64,000 nt of DNA from Pseudoalteromonas ruthenica (GTDB lineage: Bacteria > Pseudomonadota > Gammaproteobacteria > Enterobacterales > Alteromonadaceae): positions 2,232,001 through 2,296,000 of the forward strand of contig NZ_CP023396.1 in assembly GCF_008808095.1 (NCBI RefSeq), given 5' to 3'. Made by a program: the position numbers and the translations under genes. The notes below the pieces were generated by a model. That model was not told the origin of the DNA. It worked only from the letters and a program-made list of their open reading frames with translations, and did no database searches. Within the stretch, counting starts at the first letter, position 1, and the number at the start of each line of letters is the position of its first letter. Positions 14,439 through 54,933 of this stretch are shown piece by piece.

Positions 14439-15061
14439 AAAAGCACCACTTGTGTCGCTAATAGTAGAAGTACTACGCCGATGGCACGGTCAAACCAAAA
14501 CCCCTTAGCAAGGAAGAATGTGCGCACTCGTGCCCGTGTCAGCATAATGGATAAAAAAGAAAACCACGCCCAAGTCGCCAGTGCCATATAGAGCCCGTAG
14601 CCCAGTTGCACCCATTTGGGCGTGTCGATTGAGATCACTAGGGTAAATAACGATAAAAAAAACAGCGTTGCCTTGGGGTTTAACGCATTGGTTAAAAAAC
14701 CACGGCGAAAGGCCACTATAAATGACTCTGTAGGCTGCGTGGTAGTAGGGTGAACTTGCTCAACTTGCCCCGGTTTCGCGTGACGTAAAGCCTGAATACC
14801 CATGTATGCCAAATAGGCGGCTGCCATGTATTTAAGTAAATTAAATAAATCAGGTGCCTGCGAGATAAGTAATGCCACACCTACGAGGCAGTAAATAATG
14901 TGTACGAGAATACCCGCGCCCACCCCAGCGCTGGTAATAAGCGCATTATCGCGACCAAAGCGCACACTTTGACGCAGTACTACGGCAAAGTCAGGACCGG
15001 GACTGGCAACGGCAAAAAAGTGGGCACTGGCAATCGCTAAAAATTCCGGCCAATAGCTCAT
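14435..15061 (-). CDS. LysE/RhtB-family amino acid exporter
   Basis: A 208-residue inner-membrane protein with about six hydrophobic segments. The N-terminal ASPGPDFAVVLRQSVRFG is the conserved LysE/RhtB loop, and FLTNALNPKATLFFLSLF is the second family motif. Relatives export amino acids such as threonine, homoserine, lysine or leucine. It overlaps both neighbours by four bases. Together with a gamma-glutamylcyclotransferase-like protein it may dispose of amino acids released from peptides (inference). Confidence 0.92.
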   Translation of the reverse strand: MSYWPEFLAIASAHFFAVASPGPDFAVVLRQSVRFGRDNALITSAGVGAGILVHIIYCLVGVALLISQAPDLFNLLKYMAAAYLAYMGIQALRHAKPGQVEQVHPTTTQPTESFIVAFRRGFLTNALNPKATLFFLSLFTLVISIDTPKWVQLGYGLYMALATWAWFSFLSIMLTRARVRTFFLAKGFWFDRAIGVVLLLLATQVVLL

Positions 15062-32456: not shown

Positions 32457-32484
32457 TTGACCTTGAAAGTAAAATTAATAAAAT
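32457..32484 (+). promoter_or_regulatory. Probable promoter of tRNA-Ala
   Basis: TTGACC and TAAAAT are separated by 16 bp and end 34 bases before the mature tRNA 5' end, which would give a leader of about 28 nt. Both hexamers lie close to sigma-70 consensus. Confidence 0.55.
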
Positions 32485-32518: not shown

Positions 32519-32594
32519 GGGGCTATAGCTCAGCTGGGAGAGCGCCTGCCTTGCACGCAGGAGGTCAGCAGTTCGATCCTGCTTAGCTCCACCA
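32519..32594 (+). tRNA. tRNA-Ala (anticodon UGC)
   Basis: A complete 76-nt tRNA with the CCA end encoded. The acceptor stem GGGGCTA/TAGCTCC has the G3-U70 pair that identifies alanine tRNAs. The D arm, a 7-nt anticodon loop with TGC inside CCTTGCACG, and the T loop GTTCGATC are all present. It differs from the E. coli Ala-UGC tRNA at only a few places. It is not inside an rRNA operon in this window. Its last 17 bases are the first bases of the tandem repeats that follow. Confidence 0.98.
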
Positions 32595-33035
32595 TTTCCT
32601 TTCTTTTTTATTACTTTTATAGTCTGGCATCCAAGCCCATCCCCCGGCTCGGTATCCTTACCTCGCGTTCAAAACTAAAAAAGCAGTGCTTTTTTCGAGC
32701 GTTTTTCACCCTGCTTAGCTCCACCATTTCCTTCTTGTTTTATTATTTTCTTAGTCTGGCATCCAAGCCCATCCCCCGGCTCGGTATCCCTACCTCGCGT
32801 TCAAAACTAAAAAAGTGGTGCTTTTTTCGAGCGTTTTTCACCCTGCTTAGCTCCACCATTTCCTTCTTGTTTTATTATTTTCTTAGTCTGGCATCCAAGC
32901 CTATCCCCCGGCTCGGTATCCTTACCTCGCGTTCAAAACTAAAAAAGCAGTGCTTTTTTCGAGCGTTTTTCACCCTGTTTAGCTCCACCATTTCCTTTCT
33001 TTTTTATTACTTTTATAGTCTGGCATCCAAGCCCA
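32578..33035 (+). repeat. Tandem 132-bp repeats seeded by the tRNA-Ala 3' end (rtT-like)
   Basis: Units start at 32578, 32710, 32842 and 32974, each beginning CCTGCTTAGCTCCACCA (the fourth has CCTGTTTAG), that is the last 17 bases of tRNA-Ala. Three are complete at exactly 132 bp and the fourth stops at 33035. Each complete unit ends with an A6-GC-T6 hairpin, a potential terminator or processing site; in unit 2 a stem base change is tolerated as a wobble pair. Units 2 and 3 share one variant block after the CCA while units 1 and 4 share another. The layout resembles the E. coli tyrT rtT repeats, which also start with a tRNA 3' end. Confidence 0.92.
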
Positions 33036-33063: not shown

Positions 33064-33660
33064 TTACAACCACCCTTTTTGCCTGGCGATACGCGCTGCA
33101 TCACTGCGATTGGAGGCATTTAACTTACTAATCGCTTCACTGAGATAATTGCGTACCGTGCCTTCGCTTAAATAGAGCTGCGCGGCGATATCACTGGTTT
33201 TAAGCCCTTCTTCGGTGAGCTTAAGTGCGGCACTCTCTTTACGACTTAGGGGGTTATTATCCTCCAGCGCTAACAATGCCAACTCTGGGTCGATAACTTT
33301 TTGCCCTTGATGGACTTTCTTTAATGCATCGATTAGATAATCACTGGACGCTTCTTTGAGAATAAATCCGCGTACACCCGCATCCAGTGCGCGGCGAATA
33401 TAACCAGATTTAGAAAATGTTGTCATAATCACGATTTGGATACCTTCATGGGTGACTTGCTCGGCCAGCTCCAAGCCACTCATATTGGGCATTTCGATAT
33501 CGCTGAGTAGTAAATCAGCCTGTACTTCAGTCAATAATGTCAGCGCTGATTGGCCGTCACTGGCTTCACCAACCACTTCAATAAAAGGGTCTAAATTTAG
33601 TAAAGCAACAATGGCATTACGCACTAGCGCCTGATCTTCTATAACAACAACGCGTATCAT
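33064..33660 (-). CDS. NarL/LuxR-family response regulator (DesR-like)
   Basis: A 198-residue two-component regulator. Receiver domain with acidic pair Glu8-Asp9, phosphoacceptor Asp54 in LLSDIEMPN, the switch Thr (MTTFSK) and Lys (LKEA); then a C-terminal helix-turn-helix (LTEEGLKTSDIAAQLYLSEGT, given in part as the TSDIAAQLYLSEGT core) of the NarL type. It follows its sensor kinase gene by ten bases. The regulon is unknown; homologues of DesR control membrane lipid fluidity. Confidence 0.93.
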   Translation of the reverse strand: MIRVVVIEDQALVRNAIVALLNLDPFIEVVGEASDGQSALTLLTEVQADLLLSDIEMPNMSGLELAEQVTHEGIQIVIMTTFSKSGYIRRALDAGVRGFILKEASSDYLIDALKKVHQGQKVIDPELALLALEDNNPLSRKESAALKLTEEGLKTSDIAAQLYLSEGTVRNYLSEAISKLNASNRSDAARIARQKGWL

Positions 33661-47756: not shown

Positions 47757-48344
47757 ATGGCTGCCTCACGTCGCACTAACCGTAAAGAGCAGATTTTACA
47801 ATCACTCGCGCAAATGCTGGAAACTAGTCCCGGTCAGCGTATCACTACCGCCAAATTGGCCGCCGAAGTAGGCGTTTCAGAAGCAGCTCTCTATCGCCAC
47901 TTTCCTAGCAAAGCGCGTATGTTCGAGGGATTAATTGAGTTTATTGAAGACACCTTGCTGTCTCGCATTAACTTAATCTTAGAGAACGAGAAAGAAACGC
48001 AAAGCCGTGTCTACAACATTTTGATGCTACTGCTAGCGTTTGCAGAAAAGAATCCTGGGATTACTCGAATTCTCACTGGTGATGCACTGCAAGGCGAAAA
48101 CGAACGATTACGTGAACGCATTCAGAGTCTATTTGAAAAGCTAGAAACCCAGTTCAAACAGGTTTTACGTGAACGTAAATTGCGTGAGGGTAAGGCCTTT
48201 GCAAGTGACGAGGGAACCCTAGCGAACCTTTTCCTTGCGTTTGTTGAAGGGAAAATGAATCAGTTTGTACGCTCTAATTTCACGATTAAACCCAGTGGTC
48301 AATTTGATAAGCAGTGGCAAGAGCTACAGAAAATTTGGTTGTAG
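47757..48344 (+). CDS. slmA: SlmA, nucleoid occlusion TetR-family protein
   Basis: A 195-residue DNA-binding division inhibitor that blocks FtsZ assembly over the nucleoid. HTH near residues 30-55 ([21 protein letters not shown], cited by core [20 protein letters not shown]). AAGGA five bases upstream fixes the ATG at 47757. In E. coli dut lies between coaBC and slmA; here the genes are only 94 bp apart and dut is missing. The final TTG TAG of the gene is part of the following REP repeat. Confidence 0.96.
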
Positions 48345-49325
48345 ATCAGGCTTTAGCCTGACAATGTAAACCGGCCTCACACCCGTGCAAGGCTACAAGC
48401 CTTGCCTACAACAACCAATTACACACCCGTTGTAGGTCAGGCTTTAGCCTGACAATGGACATCAATCTAACAGCTGTGCAAGGCTAAAAGCCTTGCCGAC
48501 AACAACCAACTACACACACGTTGTGGGTCGGGCTTTAGCCTGACAATCAAAATCAATCTAACTCCTGCGCAAGGCTAAAAGCCTTGCCTACAACAACCAA
48601 CTACACACCCGTTGTAAGTCAGGCTTTAGCCTGATAATCGAAATCAACCTCACACCTGCACAAGGCTAAAGCCTTGCCTACAACAAACTACACACCCGTT
48701 GTGGGTCAGGCTTTAGCCTGACAATAGAAATCGACCTAATACCTGAGCAAGGCTAAAAGCCTTGCCTACAACATCAAGCTGCACACCCGTTGTAGGTCAG
48801 GCTTTAGCCTGACAATCGAAAGCAATCTAACTCCTGCGCAAGGCTAAAAGCCTTGCCTACACCAACCAATTACACACCCGTTGTAGGTCAGGCTTTAGCC
48901 TGACAATCAAAATCAATCTAACTCCTGCGCAAGGCTACAAGCCCTGCCTACAAAAATTAAACCACACACTGGTTGTGGGTCAGGCTTTAGCCTGACAATG
49001 GAAACCGGCCTCACACCTGCGCAAGGCTAAAGGCCTTGCCTACAAAATCAAACTTCACACCCGTTGTGGGTCAGGCTTTAGCCTGACAATCGACATCAAT
49101 CTAACAGCTGCGCAAGGCTACAAGCCTTGCCAACAACAACCAACGACACACCCGTTGTAGGTCGGGCTTTAGCCTGACAATGTAAACCGGGCTCACACCT
49201 GAGCAAGGCTAAAAGCCTTGCCTACATCATTAATGGCTTGGTAAAGACCAACGTGGGTCGGGCTTTAGCCTGACAATCGAAATCAACCTAACAGCTGCGC
49301 AAGGCTAAAAGCCTTGCCTACATCA
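48340..49325. repeat. Array of 11 REPIN-like units between slmA and zapE
   Basis: Eleven units of about 91 bp fill the whole convergent gap. Each unit has arm A, GTAG/GTGG-G plus palindrome TCAGGCTTTAGCCTGA, then about 25 bases, then arm B, palindrome GCAAGGCTAAAAGCCTTGC plus CTAC (the reverse complement of GTAG), then a 16-25 base linker ending ACACCCGT. Two inverted REPs with GTAG heads are the mark of REPINs mobilised by RAYT (TnpA-REP) transposases. Both arms share the core AGGCTTTAGCCT. The first arm overlaps the slmA stop. No RAYT gene is in the window. Confidence 0.92.
49225..49254. repeat. Copied zapE 3' end inside the repeat array
   Basis: Thirty bases starting CATCATTAATGGCTTGGTAA are identical to 49321-49350, which is the true 3' end of zapE. 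The copies are 96 bp apart, so the last array unit arose by a tandem duplication that took in zapE's last codons and stop. Confidence 0.95.
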
Positions 49326-53060: not shown

Positions 53061-54428
53061 ATGGATGAGGTGCAAATACGCCATCATGGCGCGGTAAACG
53101 GTGTTACTGGCTCTTGCCATGAACTTCAGGTGAGTAAGGCACAGTCGGTGCTTGTAGATTGTGGGTTGTTTCAGGGTGCCGAGGCCAAGCCAAGTTTGGC
53201 CATCGACTTTGATATAAGTGCCGTGACTGCGGTTATCATCACGCACTGTCATATTGATCATGTCGGCCGCCTCCCTTATTTACTTGCAGCGGGATTCACA
53301 GGCCCTATTTATGCTTCACAGGCGACATCGGCATTACTGCCTTTGGTCATTGAAGATGCGCTCAAACTTGGTGTCACTCAAGAGCAAGAATTAGTGGCCA
53401 CCTGTATTCGTTTGCTTAAACGCCAATTGGTAAGCGTTGATTTTAAGCACTGGTATGATTTACCCAACACCGATTGTCGCTTTCGACTGCAACGCGCGGG
53501 CCATATTCTTGGTTCAGCCTATGTGGAAATTGATTTGCCGCATAACGAGACCCGCCACCGCGTGGTGTTCTCGGGCGATCTTGGAGCCCCTTACACTCCG
53601 TTACTACCAGCGCCGAAAGCGCCCTACAAGGCCGATACTTTGGTTATTGAGTCCACCTATGGCGATAGCCTCCATCATGGCCGTAAACAACGTACACAGC
53701 AACTTAAAGCCGTGATTGAACGCGCGGTGTCAGATAACGGCGTGGTGCTTATTCCAGCCTTTAGCATTGGCCGCACACAGGAATTACTATACGAGCTTGA
53801 ACAGATTATACACAGCGCTAAAAAGCACTCTTTCTGGCAAGATATCGAAGTGATTATTGACTCTCCCATGGCAGCCAATTTCACCCGAGAGTATCGGCGC
53901 TTTAAGTCATTATGGGATAAAGAAGCCAAAGCAAGAGTTGCTAAAGGTCGCCACCCTCTCGATTTCAATAACATAGTGACAATAGATACTCACCAACAGC
54001 ATGTGCAGCTACTACAATATCTTAAGCAAAGACAAAAGCCCGCAATTGTCATTGCTGCTAGCGGCATGTGCAGTGGCGGGCGTATAGTTAACTACCTCGT
54101 TGAGTTTTTACCAGAGCCCACGACCGATGTCATTTTTGTTGGCTACCAAGGTGCAGGCACGCCAGGGCGAGCTATTCAAAAATATGGCCCACGAGGAGGC
54201 TATGTTGAACTAAATGAGCAACGCATTGATATCAATGCACATATCCACACCATCAGTGGTTACAGTGCACACGCCGATCAGGCTGGGCTGATACGCTTTG
54301 TTACCGGCATGCGTAAAAAACCTCAGCATATTAAAATTGTTCATGGCGATAATGAGGCCAAACAAGCGCTGGCAGAACAGCTCAGAAGTAAGCTTGCGCA
54401 GCAAACCAAGGTAGAAATAGCCACCTAA
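53061..54428 (+). CDS. Beta-CASP metallo-beta-lactamase-fold RNA nuclease
   Basis: A 455-residue member of the YSH1/CPSF73-like MBL group. THCHIDHVGR gives His62, His64, Asp66 and His67, GHILGSAYVEI the third metal site, FSGDLG the Asp, and the beta-CASP part has ESTYGD, AASGMCSGGRIVNYL and SGYSAHADQ, ending IVHGD. Such proteins are predicted ribonucleases; bacterial substrates are mostly unknown. Its last codons ACC TAA coincide with the consensus of the repeats that follow. Confidence 0.92.
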   Translation: MDEVQIRHHGAVNGVTGSCHELQVSKAQSVLVDCGLFQGAEAKPSLAIDFDISAVTAVIITHCHIDHVGRLPYLLAAGFTGPIYASQATSALLPLVIEDALKLGVTQEQELVATCIRLLKRQLVSVDFKHWYDLPNTDCRFRLQRAGHILGSAYVEIDLPHNETRHRVVFSGDLGAPYTPLLPAPKAPYKADTLVIESTYGDSLHHGRKQRTQQLKAVIERAVSDNGVVLIPAFSIGRTQELLYELEQIIHSAKKHSFWQDIEVIIDSPMAANFTREYRRFKSLWDKEAKARVAKGRHPLDFNNIVTIDTHQQHVQLLQYLKQRQKPAIVIAASGMCSGGRIVNYLVEFLPEPTTDVIFVGYQGAGTPGRAIQKYGPRGGYVELNEQRIDINAHIHTISGYSAHADQAGLIRFVTGMRKKPQHIKIVHGDNEAKQALAEQLRSKLAQQTKVEIAT

Positions 54429-54933
54429 TACCTATGCAAGGCTGAAGCCTTGCCTACAACAATCGAACTATACATCTGTTGTAGGTCGGGCTTTAGCCTG
54501 ACTGTCTGGATACACCTGATTCCTGTGCAAGGCTGAAGCCTTGCCTACAACAACCAAACCACAAACCAGTTGTAGGTCGGACTTTAGCCTGACTATCTAG
54601 CTACACCTAATACCTGCGCAAGGCTGAAGCCTTGCCTACAACAACCAAGCTACACACCGGTTGTGGGTCAGGCTTTAGCCTGACTGTCTAGATAAACCTA
54701 ATACCCGTGCAAGGCTGAAGCCTTGCCTACAACAATCACACTATACACCGGTTGCTGATCAGGCTTTAGCCTGACTGTCTAGATAAACTTAATACCTGTG
54801 CAAGGCTGAAGCCTTGCCTACAAAAAACCACACACCCGTTGTAGGTCGGGCTTTAGCCTGACTGTCTAGCTACACCTAATACCTGTGCAAGGCTAAAGCC
54901 TTGCCTACAACAACCAAATCACACACCGGTTTG
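54422..54933. repeat. Second REPIN-like array, beta-CASP gene / galE
   Basis: One B arm followed by five A+B units, period about 92 bp. A arms: TCGGGCTTTAGCCTGACTGT, B arms: GCAAGGCTGAAGCCTTGC plus CTAC. The spacer (CTGTCTAG..ACACCTAATACCTG) differs from that of the first array (CAATCGAAATCAATCTAAC), and the B-arm loop is TGAA rather than TAAAA. Copies within an array are thus more alike than copies between arrays. The array occupies the convergent gap up to the galE terminator. Confidence 0.92.

What the first reader, a model, noticed from the sequence alone, without database searches (positions are those of the whole stretch)
32578..33035. rtT-like tandem repeats grown from the 3' end of tRNA-Ala
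Three complete 132-bp units and a partial fourth each begin with the last 17 bases of tRNA-Ala(UGC). Each complete unit carries an A6/T6 hairpin, with one stem change kept pairable by a wobble. This layout is known for the E. coli tyrT operon (rtT, about 178-bp repeats starting with a tRNA-Tyr end), but here the tRNA and the unit are different. Units 2-3 and 1-4 share variant blocks, which points to unequal exchange rather than simple duplication. The transcript may be processed at each CCA to release small RNAs.
Basis: partly seen in the sequence, partly recalled or inferred. Interest (0 to 1): 0.75.

Follow-up and report, generated by a model that had tools for sequence, protein, structure and literature searches.

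The report
Mobile hairpin element beside tRNA-Ala
The repeats behind this tRNA gene look like tandem copies of a small mobile DNA element that settles in tRNA genes, CRISPR-like repeats and gene ends, and leaves the host gene whole because the gene's end is present twice.

Summary
The array is real: three 132-bp units and a partial fourth, each starting with the last 17 bp of tRNA-Ala(UGC). Each unit is a tRNA tail plus flank (T, about 45 bp) and an unrelated hairpin element (E, about 89 bp: two hairpins with TCC loops, one long hairpin, end CACCC). E is not specific to this tRNA. Of 186 distinct copies tested, 63 have the neighbouring gene end duplicated, and the duplicate starts 36-46 bp before E; 123 show no duplication. 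Sites with and without E exist at tRNA-Met and gor. Four relatives carry 1, 1, 2 and 3 units. So the array is best read as a non-autonomous mobile hairpin element, inserted and then tandemly amplified, not as a repeat grown from the tRNA as proposed for E. coli rtT. Hairpin stems covary. Rfam has no match. Y1 transposase, Cas1 and reverse transcriptase are each missing from carriers, and three carriers lack all three, so the mobilising enzyme is unknown. Small-RNA release at CCA is untested.

The parts
32457..32484 (+). promoter-like site upstream of the tRNA (TTGACC, 16, TAAAAT)
   Evidence: consensus scan, 10 of 12; 2 sites found against 1.1 expected, so weak
32519..32594 (+). tRNA-Ala(TGC), the target gene, intact
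   Evidence: ARAGORN and Rfam
32578..32709 (+). unit 1: T (tRNA tail and flank) plus most of element copy 1
32623..32711 (+). element copy E1; hp1 about 32626-32637, hp2 32651-32662, A6/T6 hairpin 32677-32695, ends CACCC
   Evidence: covariance model R1, 97.7 bits; this copy was in the model's alignment; hairpin limits read
32710..32841 (+). unit 2
32755..32843 (+). element copy E2, differs from E1 at 3 positions
32842..32973 (+). unit 3
32887..32975 (+). element copy E3, core identical to E1
32974..33035 (+). partial unit 4: T copy ending just after hp1; 1 difference from T of unit 1
33064..33660 (-). next gene, convergent: LuxR-type response regulator; not part of the element

Best explanation
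The array is a small non-autonomous mobile element inserted at tRNA-Ala(UGC) and amplified in tandem. The element E (about 85-100 bp) has two short hairpins with TCC loops, a long hairpin, and an end usually ..CACCC. It sits 36-46 bp after a CC in a hairpin-forming stretch (tRNA T-arm or D-arm, CRISPR-like repeat) or near a gene end (gor). Its right end is joined to a second copy of the target that starts just after that CC, so the gene stays whole and only its end (T) is duplicated. Exchange or repeated insertion at the same CC then multiplies [T+E], here 132 bp. Shown by the sequences: the dispersed family, the duplicated gene end at a near-constant offset in a third of the copies tested, sites with and without E, copy-number differences, covarying stems. 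Inferred: that an enzyme acting in trans cuts after CC in the hairpin; that T arises at first insertion (long target duplication or template switch); that filled sites later also spread by homologous recombination. The enzyme is unknown. I expect no dedicated host function.
For: Unit without the tRNA part: BLAST matches in 8 of 108 genus genomes (own included), at tRNA-Ala in G000, G011, G111, G112 and elsewhere in others. Model R1: 73 of 108; R2: 42 of 394 order genomes, 13 of 114 genera, E<=1e-4. Own genome: further copies at tRNA-Met and tRNA-Lys. 63 of 186 copies with the gene end duplicated, offset 36-46 bp within an allowed 28-62; mismatched pairings 39 of 3603. By my reading of the listed rows the 63 are: tRNA-Lys 21, CRISPR-like 19, tRNA-Ala 7, tRNA-Phe 5, gor 4, tRNA-Met 4, tRNA-Val 1, tRNA-Thr 1, other 1. 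Sites with and without E: tRNA-Met (G112 without; G011, G111 153 bp longer), gor (G011 without; G111, G112 126 and 129 bp longer). Covariation: 4 of 10 predicted pairs with both sides changed; 117 of 140 pairs in 28 distinct hp3 stems against mean 73, maximum 91 of 2000 shuffles.
Against: 123 of 186 copies show no such duplication by the test used. No mobilising enzyme found; no movement observed. Left and right gor ends differ at 13 codons in four genomes, 12 synonymous, so at gor the two copies have separate histories and T there is not a fresh target duplication. G011 at gor may be a loss rather than an empty site: its gene end is of the left-copy type, and G011 is closer to G111 (filled) than to G112 (filled). 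At trkH and purL ends E abuts the stop codon with no T copy seen. At tRNA-Ala, L160, L258 and L226 the last right copy runs on through hp1, which a simple target duplication does not predict. The copies tested were mostly chosen by score.
Confidence: 0.72

Rival explanations
1. rtT-like: the tRNA-Ala tail and its flank were duplicated in place by slippage and unequal exchange, and the transcript yields small RNAs or a terminator region.
For: Same layout as E. coli rtT and the same restart point in the T-arm; block sharing between units.
Against: E occurs at many unrelated sites without this tRNA; single-unit forms already end with a tRNA-tail copy (G112, G011); no Rfam RtT match; terminator scan 0 found, 0.9 expected.
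Confidence: 0.1
2. Casposon- or CRISPR-like integration: a Cas1-type integrase inserted E with a long target duplication.
For: Insertion at tRNA genes and among CRISPR-like repeats; casposons target tRNA gene ends with 14-15 bp duplications (passages of PMC6977970).
Against: PF01867 matches in only 40 of 108 genomes; carriers G000, G100, G125, G111, G011, G112 and G122 are not among them. Duplications here start 36-46 bp away, against 14-15 bp for casposons.
Confidence: 0.04
3. REP-like element moved by a Y1 (RAYT/IS200-type) transposase.
For: Short hairpin repeats in many copies; PF01797 matches in 91 of 108 genus genomes.
Against: No PF01797 match in the copy-rich genomes G062, G093, G094, G095, G096, G100, G122 and G130, with 15-39 element matches each.
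Confidence: 0.05
4. Transfer by homologous recombination alone: filled loci pass between species by uptake of DNA, and E has no mobility of its own any more.
For: Mostly synonymous differences between gor copies; one subfamily at the same site in G111, G112 and G086.
Against: Different cores at the same site (tRNA-Met in G000 against G011; gor in G016 against G111) and E at many different genes need separate insertions at some time.
Confidence: 0.08
5. Remnants of tandem tRNA-Ala genes whose bodies were deleted.
For: Tandem tRNA-Ala genes exist in relatives (L017, L020, L021).
Against: Only 17 bp of each unit is tRNA; most of the rest is the dispersed element.
Confidence: 0.01

Closest known systems
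E. coli tyrT/tyrV rtT repeats (rttR, tpr)
   Same: Tandem units after a tRNA gene, each starting with the tRNA's last bases; restart in the T-arm after ATCC
   Different: Unit 178 bp, unrelated sequence; no TCC-loop hairpins seen; rttR and tpr are annotated there, while here no reading frame is conserved
Small dispersed hairpin repeats and MITEs (REP, ERIC and the like; recalled)
   Same: Short, non-coding, many copies, hairpins
   Different: Gene end duplicated at a near-constant 36-46 bp; repeated use of tRNA D-arm and T-arm, CRISPR-like repeats and gor; no Y1 transposase in several copy-rich genomes
Integrative elements at tRNA genes (tyrosine recombinase type; recalled)
   Same: Host gene stays intact because a copy of its end flanks the insert
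   Different: About 90 bp and non-coding; also enters tRNA D-arms, gor and CRISPR-like repeats; integrases were not searched for
Casposons
   Same: Insertion at tRNA genes with a duplicated target (PMC6977970, passages)
   Different: Much shorter, no inverted ends seen, longer duplicated stretch, Cas1 absent from several carriers

Membership tests
RtT RNA (rtT) | match to Rfam's RtT model | tested here: not met
   only tRNA in the window at gathering score; no RtT among matches with E<=1 in 8 loci, array included
RtT RNA (rtT) | tandem units starting with the 3' end of a tRNA | tested here: met
RtT RNA (rtT) | discrete RNA released from the tRNA transcript (PMC4986893, passages) | not testable with these tools
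   no expression data
REP/RAYT system | Y1 transposase in the host | tested here: not met
   no PF01797 match in 8 copy-rich genomes
Casposon / Cas1 insertion | Cas1-type integrase in the host | tested here: not met
   40 of 108 genomes have PF01867; several carriers do not
Casposon / Cas1 insertion | terminal inverted repeats | not tested
   none noticed in the alignment, no dedicated test
Retroelement (RT-driven) | reverse transcriptase in the host | tested here: not met
   58 of 108 genomes have PF00078; G000, G062, G075, G111, G011, G112 and G122 do not
tRNA-integrated elements with tyrosine recombinase | integrase that recognises the site | not tested
   no integrase family searched
Non-autonomous mobile element | dispersed copies and sites with and without the insert | tested here: met
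   with the reservation on G011 at gor

The most novel reading that the evidence does not exclude
A new kind of mobile element: a hairpin DNA of about 90 bp that acts at a CC in a target hairpin (tRNA D-arm or T-arm, CRISPR-like repeat), enters by copying about 40-60 bp of the target onward from that CC so that it rebuilds the gene it enters, and amplifies as [gene end + element] units with a fixed start and a ragged end, perhaps through a small single-stranded circle or a template switch, driven by an enzyme not yet linked to any mobile element.
Probability: 0.25. Interest if true: 0.85.

Novelty: new variant of a known kind. Interest (0 to 1): 0.62.

Why it matters
A widespread non-coding element family without an Rfam match repeatedly sits in highly conserved genes (tRNAs) without breaking them. 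It makes an unidentified hairpin-directed insertion activity testable, and it suggests that tRNA-tail repeats such as E. coli rtT, read as local duplications, might be checked for an inserted core.

Tried and rejected
Rfam on the window and on 8 element loci: tRNA, rRNA and sub-threshold matches. Plasmid records: no match to the unit. Viral contigs: none with the exact core pattern. The 237-aa frame over the array is rejected as a gene: in G111, G011 and G112 unit spacings are 126, 132, 128 and 133 bp and stops interrupt most frames. Terminator role: scan found none, and a T-tract at hp3 is not shared by all copies. A CsrA-like reading of the opposite strand (GGA in hairpin loops) was considered and not tested; orientation to the host gene is not constant. 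Y1, Cas1 and RT as required enzymes: each absent from carriers; G122 (15 element matches), G007 (2) and G090 (1) have no match for any of the three. Loss after insertion cannot be excluded. My first view, that T is simply a target-site duplication, was weakened. An early guess of tRNA-Asp for L131 was wrong: ARAGORN says tRNA-Val; notes 3 and 4 keep older wording. Ten paper searches listed no paper that I recognised as describing this element; they cover open-licence papers and my terms only. I saw listings with starts of abstracts, and passages of PMC4986893, PMC6977970 and PMC2267715.

Full report
What is there. tRNA-Ala(TGC) ends at 32594; from 32578 a 132-bp unit is repeated three times with a partial fourth to 33035. 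The exact tail recurs beyond chance. The tRNA-Ala at C1:40499 of the same genome shows no such repeats in the stretch printed. The next gene is a convergent response regulator. Unit by unit, the first 62 bp pair 1 with 4 and 2 with 3, while the rest of unit 1 equals unit 3.

The unit is not tRNA-specific. BLAST of the unit without the tRNA hit 8 of 108 genus genomes, the own one included. In G011, G111 and G112 it lies at the same tRNA-Ala in 1, 2 and 1 complete units, each followed by a partial one. In G093 and G095 it lies among CRISPR-like repeats with its right end joined mid-repeat; in G100:C2 the array carries such a half repeat. I judged CRISPR by the repeat-spacer layout; Rfam gave only sub-threshold CRISPR-DR8 matches, in L090 of G100. 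In G111 it follows a gene that NCBIfam names glutathione-disulfide reductase (gor), with the gene end on both sides. In G125 one copy lies near a 5S rRNA gene. In 12 of the 28 loci L011-L038, those the script printed, no unit follows tRNA-Ala in the roughly 330 bases shown.

A family. Model R1, from 14 copies, hits 73 of 108 genus genomes at E<=0.01. Model R2, from 42 copies, hits 42 of 394 order genomes and 13 of 114 genera at E<=1e-4. Contigs of G112, G111, G016, G096, G033 and G122 have the same lengths as contigs named Pseudoalteromonas sp. T1lg48, sp. T1lg75, sp. G4, P. rubra S2599, sp. OOF1S-7 and sp. XMcav2-N, so the genus is Pseudoalteromonas by inference. The element has hp1 and hp2 with TCC loops, a long hp3, and a right end that reads CACCC in 77 and CAGCC in 22 of 134 copies. 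Covariation: 4 of 10 predicted pairs change on both sides. For 28 distinct outer stems of hp3, 117 of 140 pairs form, against a mean of 73 and a maximum of 91 in 2000 reshuffles. That test covers only copies that fit one search pattern; the window copies do not fit it.

Targets and offset. In the own genome copies also sit at tRNA-Met and tRNA-Lys, each with a copy of the first bases of that tRNA. Six loci with tRNA-Lys arrays repeat the scheme with units of 230, 231 or 260 bp. For the duplication test I gave a hand-made list: 134 of the 177 matches, 24 of the 49 and 31 of the 39. After dropping rows with short flanks or identical sequence, 186 remained. 63 have the right flank duplicated upstream, the duplicate starting 36-46 bp before E although 28-62 was allowed; 123 do not. 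Mismatched pairings gave 39 of 3603. 41 of the 186, and 36 of the 63, have a tRNA within 150 bp. An earlier, stricter run gave 23 copies at 39-48 bp, counted from the CC, and none from 49 to 84, among 77 of 132 copies with any repeat within 400 bp. Outside the genus the duplication is seen at tRNA-Phe (L191) and tRNA-Met (L199), and at tRNA-Thr of a contig titled Gammaproteobacteria MAG (L226). The junction follows CC: ATCC|TGC in the T-arm; TACC|AAC, reverse strand, in the D-arm; CCC|TCT or CCC|TAT in CRISPR-like repeats; ACCC|AAC in gor.

Sites with and without E. tRNA-Met: G112 lacks E; G011 and G111 are 153 bp longer; G000 carries a different core at the same place. gor: G111 and G112 are 126 and 129 bp longer than G011. 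But over 800 bp of the EamA gene G011 is closer to G111 (0.879) than to G112 (0.825), and its gor end is of the left-copy type, so G011 may have lost E. The left and right gor ends differ at 2, 6, 3 and 2 codons in G111, G112, G086 and G016; 12 of these 13 are synonymous, against 22% of random single changes (G111 and G112 probably share one insertion, and of G016's three copies the first and last were compared). So right copies seem to have been working gene ends, and filled sites probably also move by homologous recombination.

Mechanism. Best supported: insertion with a second copy of about 40-50 bp of the target, then tandem amplification. Right copies that run on through hp1 (tRNA-Ala, L160, L258, L226) suggest a fixed start at CC and a ragged end. 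At a trkH end (L137, scanned; L174 by its reading frame) and a purL end (L161, scanned) E abuts the stop codon and no T copy was found. Y1_Tnp, Cas1 and RT are each absent from carriers, and G122, G007 and G090 show none of the three.

Compared with rtT. E. coli rtT also restarts in the T-arm at ATCC, but its unit is unrelated by eye and Rfam's RtT does not match here. The layout is like rtT; it is not shown to be a member. Small-RNA release is untested.

Noticed in passing
window 48338-49322 and 54422-54931: Two other arrays of 91-bp units (10.8 and 5.6 copies) with hairpin-like GTTGTAGG..CCTACAAC motifs.
   Followed up: no
window 14641-14729 (-): Weak match to the element model, 17 bits, E 0.018; may be chance.
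   Followed up: no
own genome C1:20653-20870 (L137): Two model matches in tandem right after a TrkH-family gene whose last codon and stop abut the element.
   Followed up: partly
L263, L269, L272, L273, L278-L282: Nine identical element copies embedded in a larger dispersed repeat in G011, G111 and G112.
   Followed up: no
G093:C99:1041-2747: RT and Cas1 matches lie in one open frame of 686 aa, which looks like an RT-Cas1 fusion.
   Followed up: no
L258 (G016 gor): A different core at the same gor site, in a damaged tandem array; gor looks like a repeated target.
   Followed up: partly
L180 (E. coli NC_000913, tyrV/rttR): rtT repeats restart at the same T-arm position (ATCC) as the array here, a hint of a shared kind of origin.
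   Followed up: partly
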